From an uncultured bacterium (lineage in GTDB: Bacteria; Bacillota_I; Bacilli_A; RF39; UBA660), in contig CAMNUE010000003.1 of assembly GCA_946560065.1 (NCBI GenBank), positions 62,001-126,000 on the forward strand: DNA of 64,000 nt, given 5' to 3'. A program made the translations under genes and the position numbers. Below, in pieces: positions 3,934-25,504 of the stretch. Position 1 is the first letter of the stretch; every line of letters begins with the position of its first letter. The notes beneath the pieces were generated by a model. That model made no database searches. It was not told the DNA's origin and worked only from the letters and a program-made list of their open reading frames with translations.

Positions 3934-6900
3934 CTAATGGTCTATTTCTATAACATATGGTGCTTCAATACTACCATCTCCTGAATTGTATGTAACCCCA
4001 TTTTTCAATGATATAGATGGTCGTACTCCCATTAAGCCTCCGATATAATCTCTACCATAGTAACTATCATCACCATCTTGAGCCAAGTAATTTCCATATG
4101 CATTACCATAACGATAATAATAAGGTGAATTAAGCCAACTAACACTTTTTGACATTATTGGTGATTCTTTCGTTGAATATTGAAATGCCATTTTTCTTTC
4201 TTGTTCGGTAATTAATCCAACAGGGTATGTCAATGCTCCATTACCGTTCATTTTATCAACTGTAAATCTATCAATTTCATTCAGACAGGTTAAATTTTCT
4301 TTGTTGTCTGTGTATGCAGAGAATTTTATTTCAGATTTATATCCTCCTCCATCTTTATTCAGTCCATTTTCATTCATATTACTTATACTTCTTTCATTAC
4401 ACCAAACTGTATCCTCAAGATATTTTGTGTATTGTCTCATATATTTTGAATACCATAAATCTATTACGCTTTTAATTGCAGAGTTGTATTTATTCACATC
4501 ATTGGCATATAACATTTCATTGATGATAGTTTCGATATCTTTACCAGAATTCAGTTCGAAATAGTATGGAGATATATTGCTTATGGGAACGTTATTCATA
4601 TTCACTCCTTGTATATTGTATATGTAGGATAGTGTTTTACATTTACCTTCAGAATTCCAGCAAGTATAGTGTGTATTTTCTAATTTTGCATCTGAATTTT
4701 CCGCTCCCCATTCTAAAAAGTTTTGAACTTTTCCATTTAAGGTATACTCTCCTGTTGAGTTGTCGTAAATAAATGAGCTTCCATATTTATAGTTATTAGA
4801 AATATCTAAGCGGACAAAAAGATTGGGAGCGGTCAATGTAACGTAATATACCTTATCACAAGTAAGATTTGAACAATAATATTTGTTCTCATAATTTTTG
4901 TGTTCATTAAACCATTCTATTTTTTTTACTTTTTTAGTTGTTTTTGGATCTAACACTTGTTTTCCATTCCCATCATCAACTAAAGAATCTGCAAAATAAT
5001 AAGATTCCTCAGTAGAATGTATATTTTCCCCGTCTCTAAAAGCTACTGTATACATAGTGCGACTTCTTTCATTTATACCTTCTATGTACTTTACGTAATT
5101 TTTGCTGAATACTTCATCTGAACTAGAAAAGGTATATTTTCCAGCTATATTTAAATAATCTGATGAAGATGTTATTTTAAATGGATTTACTAATGTATAT
5201 TCCATAGTAGATGGATTCCACTCAATATCATCAGCATAATAATAACTATTTGATATTGATTCGTCATTAAGAGTCAGTTCAGTGTTATACATTTGCTTTG
5301 TTTTAGATATATATCTTGCATTGTACATATATCCTACATCGGCTATTGATGTGTCATTGTTATTAAATTTACTTTTTCCAATTTCAGAATATTTTGTGTT
5401 TAAAGATATTGGTATGACTTCTGCAGATGTGTTGGATTTATATGATTCCACATAGTACAATGTACTACAAGTTCCTGTTGTATTTGCACAGGTATATCTT
5501 CCTATTAAATTCTGGTAAGTTGTGGAATTCCAAATTACTTGTTCTAAATCTCCAGACAAAGTAAATGTTTTAGATACTTCATCGTATGTATAATCCGTTC
5601 CATAGTTATAGTTAGCTGAAAGTGTTTGAGTTGTTCTTGAATCATACCCAACATGAGTTTCTCTATTTGTTCCACATTTGCCTTCAGAATCTGGTTCTCC
5701 ATTATAAATCATTTTTACTCCACCTGTATCTGTTGTTCTATACATACTCCAACAAAATCCACCAAAGATAACATTATTATTTTGAGTTTTTCCCTTGTAA
5801 TAGTAAATATCTTGATTTTCTTTGAACGTACTTGTATCTCCAGTATATTTTTGGGCACCTTTATTATTTTCATAATCTTGTTTAATTTGTTTGTATAAAG
5901 TAATTTTTTCCTTGATAGTACCTTCCATTGATTTACTAATACCTAATTTACTCCAATTTGCTTTTAAAGTAACATCTTCCTCTGGCATTATGAAGTAATC
6001 ATCATTAACTTTTTTAGCATTCTTGTTAATTATCTTCCATCCTTTGAATTGATAACCTTCGCATTTTGGAACACTATTGCTTATTTCAACTGTATCGAAT
6101 ACTGTGTGTTGTTTTTCTGAAGGGACACTTTCTACTTTGCAACCAGATGGCTTATTCCCGTCATATACTACTTTATAATTATTAGAAAGTATTGGTGTTT
6201 TGGAACTAGTAACGTTTTCTTCATCTTCGTTTAGTGTACTTTTAACATCTTCCTTTTCGTTTGTTGAATAGATTCCACCTTTTCCTAATAATTCTTCCTT
6301 TAATTTGGCTTTGATTGTCACTTTTGCTTTTAGACCAGATTTTAAATCGTCCATTTTCCAAGTAAATTTTTGATTATCCTTATCGAAAGATATGTTCCCT
6401 TGACTTACTTTTATGTCATTTTCACTCTCTACATAAAAATAGTTTGTATCGATGTAATCTGTTATCTCAAAATTTTCATAAGTAACTGGAGTAATAGATG
6501 CTTCAAATAAAACATTGTTTAAAGTCTCCATATCCGCTATATATTGATTATCACTAACTTTTTTTATTGGATTCAAAATTGTACTTCCCATTTCATATTG
6601 AACTCCATTAATTGTGATAAATGGATATTGACTCTTCAAATAACTGTATTGTCCTTCTTCATTTGGAATTTCTTCATTAGGATAACCATCTGTTAAAAAT
6701 AAAACTATACATTCTTTATCTTTTTCTTTTACATAATCCTTTAAAACTGTATCGACATTTACTAATGCTTGGTAATAGTTCGTACAGCCTGTAGTAGTCA
6801 AAGAATTTATTTTATTTATTAATTCTTCTTTATTATTAGTTAGTGGAGAAACAATCTGAGAATTAGTCTCAAAAGTAATAAGTCCCGCTTTATTCTTATC

Positions 6901-7293
6901 ATTTGCAAGTAAACTCTCAATTAGCTGAATACTATCTGCTTTTACCTTATCCAACTTTTCCCCATCCATCGAACCAGATACATCTAGTACAAATAAAATA
7001 TCAGTGTACTTAGTATTACTCTTCATGATAGAATCAACATCAAAAGTAATTTCTGCAGTCCCCTTTTCTTTCCACTTTGCACTCTTCTTTATCTTCCAAG
7101 CACCTGGTTCCTTTTTTTCATAATCTAATTTCTCAGAAAAGATTTCCACACTCTTCACTGGGTGTAGTTGGGCAAATATTCTTGGTGCTGTAACAATTCC
7201 TAAGACAAAAATTAATGCTAGATAAAAATATGGAATTTTATTTTTACTTAGAACTGTTTTTAATTTTGGAATATTCACCTTTATTTTATTCAT
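3934..7293 (-). CDS. Large VWA-domain surface protein with InlB-type (Listeria-Bacteroides) repeat and Cys-pair repeats
   Basis: N-terminal hydrophobic signal/anchor; MIDAS DVSGSMDGEKL; VVYDGNKPSGCKVESVPSEKQHTVFDTVEI...GYQFKGWKI...MPEEDVTLKANWSK; C-terminal GGLMGVRPSISLKNGVTYNSGDGS. Confidence 0.8.
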   Translation of the reverse strand: MNKIKVNIPKLKTVLSKNKIPYFYLALIFVLGIVTAPRIFAQLHPVKSVEIFSEKLDYEKKEPGAWKIKKSAKWKEKGTAEITFDVDSIMKSNTKYTDILFVLDVSGSMDGEKLDKVKADSIQLIESLLANDKNKAGLITFETNSQIVSPLTNNKEELINKINSLTTTGCTNYYQALVNVDTVLKDYVKEKDKECIVLFLTDGYPNEEIPNEEGQYSYLKSQYPFITINGVQYEMGSTILNPIKKVSDNQYIADMETLNNVLFEASITPVTYENFEITDYIDTNYFYVESENDIKVSQGNISFDKDNQKFTWKMDDLKSGLKAKVTIKAKLKEELLGKGGIYSTNEKEDVKSTLNEDEENVTSSKTPILSNNYKVVYDGNKPSGCKVESVPSEKQHTVFDTVEISNSVPKCEGYQFKGWKIINKNAKKVNDDYFIMPEEDVTLKANWSKLGISKSMEGTIKEKITLYKQIKQDYENNKGAQKYTGDTSTFKENQDIYYYKGKTQNNNVIFGGFCWSMYRTTDTGGVKMIYNGEPDSEGKCGTNRETHVGYDSRTTQTLSANYNYGTDYTYDEVSKTFTLSGDLEQVIWNSTTYQNLIGRYTCANTTGTCSTLYYVESYKSNTSAEVIPISLNTKYSEIGKSKFNNNDTSIADVGYMYNARYISKTKQMYNTELTLNDESISNSYYYADDIEWNPSTMEYTLVNPFKITSSSDYLNIAGKYTFSSSDEVFSKNYVKYIEGINERSRTMYTVAFRDGENIHSTEESYYFADSLVDDGNGKQVLDPKTTKKVKKIEWFNEHKNYENKYYCSNLTCDKVYYVTLTAPNLFVRLDISNNYKYGSSFIYDNSTGEYTLNGKVQNFLEWGAENSDAKLENTHYTCWNSEGKCKTLSYIYNIQGVNMNNVPISNISPYYFELNSGKDIETIINEMLYANDVNKYNSAIKSVIDLWYSKYMRQYTKYLEDTVWCNERSISNMNENGLNKDGGGYKSEIKFSAYTDNKENLTCLNEIDRFTVDKMNGNGALTYPVGLITEQERKMAFQYSTKESPIMSKSVSWLNSPYYYRYGNAYGNYLAQDGDDSYYGRDYIGGLMGVRPSISLKNGVTYNSGDGSIEAPYVIEIDH

Positions 7294-23033: not shown

Positions 23034-25447
23034 TTAACTTGTTAAGGATACAGCTTGACCTTTAACAACGTTTTTTCTTTCTTGTCTTGTAGCTATAATT
23101 TTGTCTGCTAATTCTTCACTGCCTTCCAAATAATTAACAATAATCTTACCATCTCCACTAGTTGATATGTAACCGAAAGCATTAGAATAAGAACTTATTT
23201 TGTTTCCTAGAGTTAAAGATATGTTTATATTTCCTACGTATGCAAACATTGTATCCATATTAACTACATTGTAAAGATTCATATTGGTAACAATTAAATT
23301 ATTTAGACCTGTGCACCACCAAAACATGTAAGATACATCCTCAACATTTGAAAAATCGAAGTTACTGATGTTAAGGGCTAAAAGTTTACTAGAGCCTGCA
23401 AACATATAACTCATCTTTGTAACTTTTGATGTGTCAAAGTTGCTTAAGTCAAGTTCAGCTAAATCTTCATTCCAATAAAACATTGAAGTCATGTCAGTTA
23501 CTTTGCTAGTATTAAAACTACTTACATTAAGTGATTTTAAACTAGTTGCATAGAACATTCCTGCCATTGTCTCCACATTAGATGTATCAAAACTACTTAG
23601 ATCTAAATTTGTAAAGCTACTCCAATAAAACATTCCATACATATTAGTTACTTTTGATGTATTAAAATTACTAAAATCTAGATTTTCAAGTCCACAATTA
23701 TAAAACATAAGAGTCATATTTTCGACGTTAGATGTATCTAGAAGATTGATATTTATTATTGATTTCAGATTTGTGAATTCATAAAATAAATACGAGCTAT
23801 CTGGGTTGGCAAGAATTGTTTCATCACTTTGAATATAGGCTGTGTATTTTGTATTATCATCTTCTCTTGGAACAATATATCCCATTATTCTTTTATCTTT
23901 ATTTTCAGATAGATCCAAGACATCGATAGCTTCTGGGATTTGCTTTATACTATCTTGAAAAACTATTTCTACGAGGCTATCAGCATATTTATGTAAGCCT
24001 GCTTCCATTTCATCTGTTTCTTCATTGTATATTACGCGTTCTAAGAAATTTGGACTGTTTTTGGAAACAGTTCCTTCAAGTTTTTTCTCAACTGAAGTAC
24101 GTCCCCATACTGCTCTAATTACAACATCTTTTTCTGGCATAACGAAATAATCCATATTAAGCTTACTAACATTTTCTGTAACTATCTCCCAGCCTTTAAA
24201 TTTATATCCTGAACATCTTAATTTCTGTTCACTTATTTCGACTGAATCAAAGACAGAATAATATCTTTCATTCGGAATGTCTCCCTCTACTTTGCATCCA
24301 AATGGGGCATTATCATCGTATACAACTTTATAATTATCTGCCAAAATAGGTGTGCTTTCACTTGTAACTTTTTCCTCATTTTCATCTAATTTACTTTTTA
24401 TTTCTTCTTTTTTATTAGTAGGAAAAATTCCGCCTTGATTAACAAATTCTTCTTTTAATTTAACTTTTATTGTCATTTTGGCTTTTCTTCCAGAATTTAA
24501 TTCATCAATTATCCATGTTATTTTTTGGCTTTCTTTGTCCAGTGTCGCTTTTCCTCTATTTGTTTTGATATTACTTTCATCTTCTATGTAAAAATAATCC
24601 GTGTCAATGTAATCTGTTATCTCAAAATTCTCATAAGTAGTTGATGTTATTGAAGCTTCAAATAAGACATTATTTAAGTTTTGCATATCAGCAATAAATT
24701 GGTAATCACTAACTTTTTTTATCGGTTCTAGAATTGTTTTACCCATCTCATATTGAATTCCATTTATTGTGATAAATGGGTATTGGCTTTTTAAATACTC
24801 ATATTGCGCAACCTCATTAGGAATATCTTCATTTGGATATCCATCTGTTAAGAACAATACAATACATTCCCTATCTTTTTCTTTTACATACTCTTTCAAA
24901 ATAGAGTCTACATTAATTAGTGCTTGATAATAATTAGTACAACCAGTAGTACTTAGTCTATTCACCTTTCCAATCAAATCATCTTTGTTATTGGTAAAGT
25001 TAGAAATTATTTGTGAGTTAGTTTCGAAGGTGATTAGACCGGCTTTATTTTTACTGTTAGATAGTAAACTATTGATTAATTCGATTGTATCAAGCTTAAC
25101 TTTATCCAATTTTTCTTCATTCATTGATCCAGATGTATCTAAGACAAAAAGTATATCGGTAAACTTATCATTGTTTTTAATTATTGTGTCAACATCAAAG
25201 GTAATTTCAGCAACACCTTTGATTATCCATTTAGCACTCTTATCAATTTTCCATGATCCTGGCTCTTTTTTTTCGTAGTTAGCCTTTTCCGAAAATATTT
25301 CTATTTTTTTACAACTTGTGGTTGGGCAAGTATTTTGGGAACTGTAACTATTCCTATAAACAATAATAAAATAAAACTTAATGCGATGATTTTATTTTTT
25401 CTTGTTAATGAATTCAAATAGTAAAACTTGTTTTTTTGCTTATTCAT
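23034..25447 (-). pseudogene. VWA + InlB-repeat + BspA/DUF285-type surface protein, two frames joined at an A7 tract (programmed frameshift, phase variable, pseudogene or sequencing error)
   Basis: Frame 1 from ATG 25447: MNKQKNKFYYLNSLTRKNKIIALSFILLLFIGIVTVPKILAQPQVVKK*; other frame continues KKIEIFSEKANYEKKEPGSWKIDKSAKWIIKGVAEITFDVDTIIKNNDKFTDILFVLDTSGSMNEEKLDK..., matching the 3934-7293 paralog. A-run at 25304-25310. The track ORF 23034..25124 starts after the MIDAS Asp. Confidence 0.7.
23235..23795 (-). repeat. About seven BspA/DUF285-type ~25-aa repeats
   Basis: LDFSNFNTSKVTNMYGMFY, LDLSSFDTSNVETMAGMFY, LNVSSFNTSKVTDMTSMFY, LDLSNFDTSKVTKMSYMFA, LNISNFDFSNVEDVSYMFW. Confidence 0.85.
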
Positions 25448-25504
25448 ACTATCCCACCTTACAGTAAAATTATAGCAAACAATTAATTACTAAACAACTG
25501 TCTT

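What the first reader, a model, noticed from the sequence alone, without database searches (positions are those of the whole stretch)
25301..25447. Slippery A_AAA_AAA heptamer followed immediately by a stop joins the signal peptide to the body of a VWA/BspA surface protein
Seen directly: on the minus strand an ATG at 25447 gives MNKQKNKFYYLNSLTRKNKIIALSFILLLFIGIVTVPKILAQPQVVKK*, ending ...GTT GTA AAA AAA TAG. The rest of the protein (KKIEIFSEKANYEKKEPGSWKIDKSAKW...DTSGSMNEEKL...) is in the -1 frame, reached exactly if ribosomes slip on A_AAA_AAA (25304-25310) to read ATA GAA ATA TTT. The intact paralog at 7293 has the same junction in one frame without the A-run. Without slippage the cell makes a ~48-aa secretion peptide only; with -1 slippage or an 8-A allele it makes the full protein. 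Could be programmed -1 frameshifting, transcriptional slippage, a phase-variable contingency locus, a recent pseudogene or a homopolymer sequencing error. The track ORF start (25124) falls just after the MIDAS DxSGS, so the unshifted product would lack signal peptide and MIDAS Asp.
Basis: partly seen in the sequence, partly recalled or inferred. Interest (0 to 1): 0.77.

Follow-up and report, generated by a model that had tools for sequence, protein, structure and literature searches.

The report
Frameshifted surface-protein gene copy
One of about ten related cell-surface protein genes in an uncultured gut bacterium has lost its reading frame at a run of seven A's just after the secretion signal; this looks like a recent single-base mutation (possibly a reversible off-switch, possibly an assembly error), not a built-in frameshifting device, and is fairly ordinary.

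Summary
On the minus strand an ATG at 25447 opens a 48-codon signal-peptide frame that ends ...GTA AAA AAA TAG. The VWA/PARCEL-repeat body (757 codons, no stops) continues in the -1 frame.

The programmed-frameshift reading fails its main test. All 76 relatives from other genomes with a readable 5' end, 8 intact paralogs in the same genome and 6 homologs in the same genus cross this junction in one frame. None has a frameshift there. Five relatives carry the same in-phase A_AAA_AAA and are intact. The heptamer is common: about 40 in-phase copies in the 49 genes of this 27% GC window, fewer than codon shuffles give. No downstream structure or upstream Shine-Dalgarno stimulator is evident.

The body is well conserved and has a short tree branch, so the break is young. 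Another paralog carries two frameshifts away from homopolymers, so copies of this family do decay. Best reading: a recent one-base loss in or beside the A-run that switches this copy off. Whether it is reversible, as in M. hominis vaa or L. monocytogenes inlA, or a consensus error cannot be decided without reads or strains. Interest is low.

The parts
25301..25447 (-). Upstream frame: ATG to TAG, 48 codons, lysine-rich N-terminus plus hydrophobic signal segment (ALSFILLLFIGIVTVPKILAQ)
   Evidence: homologous to residues 1-47 of paralog 3934-7293
25304..25310 (-). A7 run, A_AAA_AAA in the upstream frame; site of the frame break
25301..25303 (-). TAG stop directly after the A7 run in the upstream frame
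23034..25307 (-). Body in the -1 frame: VWA domain, InlB-type Flg_new_2 repeat, DUF285/PARCEL (BspA-like) repeats; 757 codons without a stop
25119..25140 (-). Region coding DTSGSM (MIDAS motif); the ATG at 25124 used by mechanical ORF calling lies inside it
25448..25475 (-). Likely expression signals: TATAAT-like -10 and AAGGTGGG Shine-Dalgarno ahead of the ATG
   Evidence: read directly from the sequence; the promoter scan does not list this -10, so the promoter is inference
3934..7293 (-). Intact paralog, 1119 aa, used as reference

Best explanation
This is one copy of an expanded family (about ten members in the genome) of secreted VWA-domain surface proteins in an uncultured gut Bacilli lineage. 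It has recently lost one base in or beside an A-run at the signal-peptide/mature-protein hinge. As sequenced, the cell would make only a 48-residue signal-peptide fragment from it, so the copy is off. The mutation is of the ordinary kind for A-runs in a 27% GC genome (replication slippage). The A7 run may be the cause, or may partly be a product of the deletion, since the own-genome paralogs have S or N codons there, not a second lysine. Shown: the frame break, the intact and conserved body, the absence of the break in relatives. Inferred: that the mutation is real and recent. Not shown: whether it reverts.
For: Frame open across the junction in 76 of 76 relatives with a readable 5' end, in 8 own-genome paralogs and in 6 same-genus homologs. 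Body of 757 codons without a stop; if it were neutral, P(no nonsense) falls to 0.09 at 2% divergence and 0.03 at 3%, so the break is young or very rarely matters. Conserved columns are kept about as well as in intact paralogs: 5 of 103 own-family invariant columns changed, range 0-8 among the close intact ones. Branch length 0.29 against 0.39-0.49 for several intact paralogs. Another paralog (L034, G000:C6) has two frameshifts at sites without long homopolymers, showing real decay within the family. A-runs of this length mutate often enough for such alleles to arise: inlA A6/A7 (PMC2831843).
Against: There are no reads and no second genome of the species, so a consensus error is not excluded. 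A frameshift at an A-run in the 5' end of a surface gene, with the body perfectly kept, is also what a reversible switch would look like.
Confidence: 0.5

Rival explanations
1. Consensus (sequencing or assembly) error in a metagenome-type assembly; the gene is really intact.
For: Homopolymer indels are the typical consensus error (general knowledge); the genome is a 25-contig draft with a 6% contamination estimate; the body shows no decay.
Against: The window genes hold 79 A>=7 runs (67 A7, 12 A8) and only this one is seen to break a frame (the neighbouring ORFs tested mostly give near-full Pfam profiles), so homopolymer errors are not rife. L034 is broken away from long runs.
Confidence: 0.25
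2. Phase-variable contingency locus: the A-run gains and loses a base in the population and switches this adhesin-like protein on and off; the assembly caught the off state.
For: Position (5' end, just after the signal peptide) and tract length match Mycoplasma hominis vaa, where 8 A is on and 7 or 9 off (PMC524362), and L. monocytogenes inlA A6/A7 (PMC2831843). The protein is a multi-copy surface protein, the usual kind of target. The body is kept.
Against: No tract at the hinge in the other own-genome paralogs; no off state at the hinge among 76 relatives, including five with A7 at the same place. A7 is a modest tract in a genome full of them. The measured inlA A7 to A6 rate was low, about 4e-8.
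Confidence: 0.17
3. Productive -1 ribosomal frameshifting or transcriptional slippage on A_AAA_AAA yields some full-length protein.
For: The heptamer, phase and direction fit. Poly-A slippage rescues frames in AT-rich endosymbionts (PMC5009743).
Against: Not conserved anywhere in the family. About 40 in-phase heptamers sit inside other window genes. A_AAA_AAA is much less shift-prone than A_AAA_AAG in E. coli (PMC5009743). No downstream structure beyond chance (z 0.03 and -0.96). No Shine-Dalgarno-like sequence 9-14 nt upstream (sequence). Transcriptional slippage in bacteria is described on runs of 9 (PMC5009743).
Confidence: 0.06
4. Settled pseudogene, long out of use.
For: Frame broken; another paralog, L034, is decaying.
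Against: No second lesion in 757 codons; conserved residues kept; no long branch.
Confidence: 0.02

Closest known systems
Mycoplasma hominis vaa poly-A phase-variable adhesin
   Same: A-run near the 5' end of a surface-adhesin gene; seven A puts the gene out of frame
   Different: In vaa, switching between tract lengths is measured. Here only one allele from one genome is known, and no relationship between the genes was found or tested.
Listeria monocytogenes inlA 5' poly-A frameshift
   Same: Short 5' A-run in a surface-protein gene of a low-GC Gram-positive; one-base change truncates the product
   Different: inlA alleles are known in many strains; the inlA truncation is after 8 residues, here after the signal peptide.
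E. coli dnaX-type -1 programmed ribosomal frameshifting
   Same: A-rich slippery heptamer in the correct phase
   Different: No conserved site, no stimulators, and a weaker heptamer.
Bifidobacterium breve pilus G-tract replication slippage switch (PMC9187656)
   Same: Homopolymer-based on/off state of a surface structure in a gut commensal is the closest analogue if this site proves variable
   Different: G-tract with measured length plasticity; here an A7 with no population data.
VWA/BspA-like (PARCEL, DUF285) surface proteins of gut Bacilli
   Same: Domain content of the body
   Different: This copy is split by a frameshift.

Membership tests
Programmed -1 ribosomal frameshifting | Slippery heptamer in correct phase at the frame junction | tested here: met
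   A_AAA_AAA at 25310-25304
Programmed -1 ribosomal frameshifting | Frame split conserved among homologs | tested here: not met
   0 of 76 relatives, 0 of 8 other intact paralogs, 0 of 6 congeneric homologs split there
Programmed -1 ribosomal frameshifting | 3' structure or upstream Shine-Dalgarno stimulator | tested here: not met
   z-scores 0.03 (80 nt) and -0.96 (120 nt); no SD-like sequence 9-14 nt upstream
Homopolymer phase variation (contingency locus) | Homopolymer tract in the 5' part of a surface gene | tested here: met
   A7, codons 46-48
Homopolymer phase variation (contingency locus) | Tract-length variation within a population or among strains | not testable with these tools
   No reads; no other genome of the species found
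Homopolymer phase variation (contingency locus) | Tract maintained in homologs (supporting, not strictly required) | tested here: not met
   Tract absent in own-genome paralogs; A7 at this hinge in only 5 of 76 relatives, all in frame
Transcriptional slippage | Run of about 9 or more A or T | tested here: not met
   Run is 7; run length of 9 from PMC5009743
VWA / PARCEL surface protein | Signal peptide, VWA with MIDAS, repeats | tested here: met
   signal peptide and MIDAS lie in different frames here
Pseudogene | Further lesions or relaxed constraint | tested here: not met
   No stops in 757 codons, no excess of changed conserved columns

The most novel reading that the evidence does not exclude
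The A-run is a contingency switch for one member of a multi-copy VWA adhesin-like family in an uncultured gut Bacilli lineage, so that individual cells or strains show different subsets of the family.
Probability: 0.17. Interest if true: 0.4.

Novelty: new member of a known kind. Interest (0 to 1): 0.15.

Why it matters
If reversible, it would extend poly-A on/off switching of adhesins, known in mycoplasmas and Listeria, to uncultured gut Bacilli. If not, it is a routine example of copy loss in an expanded surface-protein family, and a reminder that A_AAA_AAA in a 27% GC genome is no sign of programmed frameshifting.

Tried and rejected
Reading TAG through as an amino acid: the upstream frame meets another stop within 30 codons. 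Internal start at ATG 25124: it lies inside the MIDAS motif, has no Shine-Dalgarno, and would lack the signal peptide. Recombination with or donation to paralogs: longest exact shared word with any paralog is 29 nt, so no recent conversion was seen in the VWA part. Single-protein search of genome contigs found no conspecific; IMG/VR search found no homologs. The two other DUF285 proteins of the genome have uninterrupted 5' ends. A first version of the survey script failed on a wrong option and was rerun.

Full report
Observation. ATG 25447 opens a 48-codon frame with a typical signal segment, ending GTT GTA AAA AAA TAG; the A-run is seven long (25310-25304). The rest of the protein is in the -1 frame and runs 757 codons to the stop at 23034. 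Pfam and NCBIfam find a VWA domain, an InlB-type repeat and DUF285/PARCEL repeats in the body. The alignment to paralogs places the frame change within a codon or so of the A-run (...AQPQVVKK / KIEIFSEK... against ...AQLHPVKSVEIFSEK...).

Is the heptamer special? No. The window is 27.3% GC. Its 49 genes hold 79 runs of seven or eight A; in-phase A_AAA_AAA occurs 40 times, against 74 +/- 7 in synonymous-codon shuffles, so the motif is common and, if anything, avoided. The neighbouring ORFs that were tested look complete.

Family. The genome (G000, 1.98 Mb in 25 contigs) has about ten copies. Eight cross the hinge in one frame; none of these has an A-run there. One further copy, L034, has two frameshifts, near residues 65 and 890, neither at a long homopolymer: real decay occurs in this family. 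Six homologs in other species of the genus are uninterrupted there. A profile search of 85,488 species genomes gave 80 loci in uncultured Bacilli and, further off, MAGs labelled Saccharibacteria. Four are cut by contig ends before the hinge; the other 76 all run through the hinge in one frame with a hydrophobic segment upstream. One of them, L095, has an in-frame TAG further up in its signal-peptide region. In five of the 76 the hinge is coded xTA AAA AAA GTA, the same in-phase A7 in an intact gene. Some of these loci may duplicate the same-genus genomes, so the two counts are not fully independent.

Mechanism. Programmed frameshifting should be conserved and usually has stimulators; neither holds. 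A_AAA_AAA is a weak site compared with A_AAA_AAG in E. coli, and bacterial transcriptional slippage is described on runs of nine (PMC5009743). A recent frame-breaking mutation is the simplest account. The body shows no second lesion; under neutrality the chance of that drops below 0.1 by 2% divergence. Conserved columns are kept as in intact paralogs and the branch is not long. These same facts fit an off allele of a switch and a consensus error equally well. Against a general homopolymer-error problem stands the single break among 79 runs. For a switch there are good precedents, vaa and inlA, but no sign here of tract conservation or variation. The residue before the V/I-E-I motif is S in 59, K in 10, T in 6 and V in 1 of 76 relatives, and S or N in the own-genome intact copies aligned. 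The A7 run could therefore have been there before the break or have been made longer by it.

Limits. Organism: the nearest named relatives are MAGs of uncultured Bacilli from animal guts; placing the window in that group is inference from those titles and from the genus-level matches.

Verdict. Observation confirmed; programmed slippage not supported; best read as a recent off allele of one family member, with phase variation and assembly error as open rivals that need reads or strains.

Noticed in passing
L034 (G000:C6:37000-45000, minus strand, 5799 to about 2500): Paralog with two frameshifts, near residues 65-68 and 888-892, at sites without long homopolymers: a copy in decay.
   Followed up: partly
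L095, about 130 nt before the match (MLKVF*YFLKTYKKEV...): A relative in another Bacilli MAG has an in-frame TAG inside the signal-peptide region, after codon 5, with the rest open.
   Followed up: partly
L119-L128, L131-L132, L136, L139 and L144-L151: MAGs labelled Saccharibacteria hold many copies of the same VWA family (44-48% identity), several in a frame open about 670 codons upstream of the VWA part; lateral transfer or binning/labelling error.
   Followed up: no
window 23034-24000: The C-terminal part of this copy is made of DUF285/PARCEL repeats, unlike paralog 3934-7293, which lacks them; suggests domain swapping in the family.
   Followed up: no
window coding regions: In-phase A_AAA_AAA is about half as common as codon shuffles predict (40 against 74), consistent with mild selection against slippery runs in an AT-rich genome.
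   Followed up: partly
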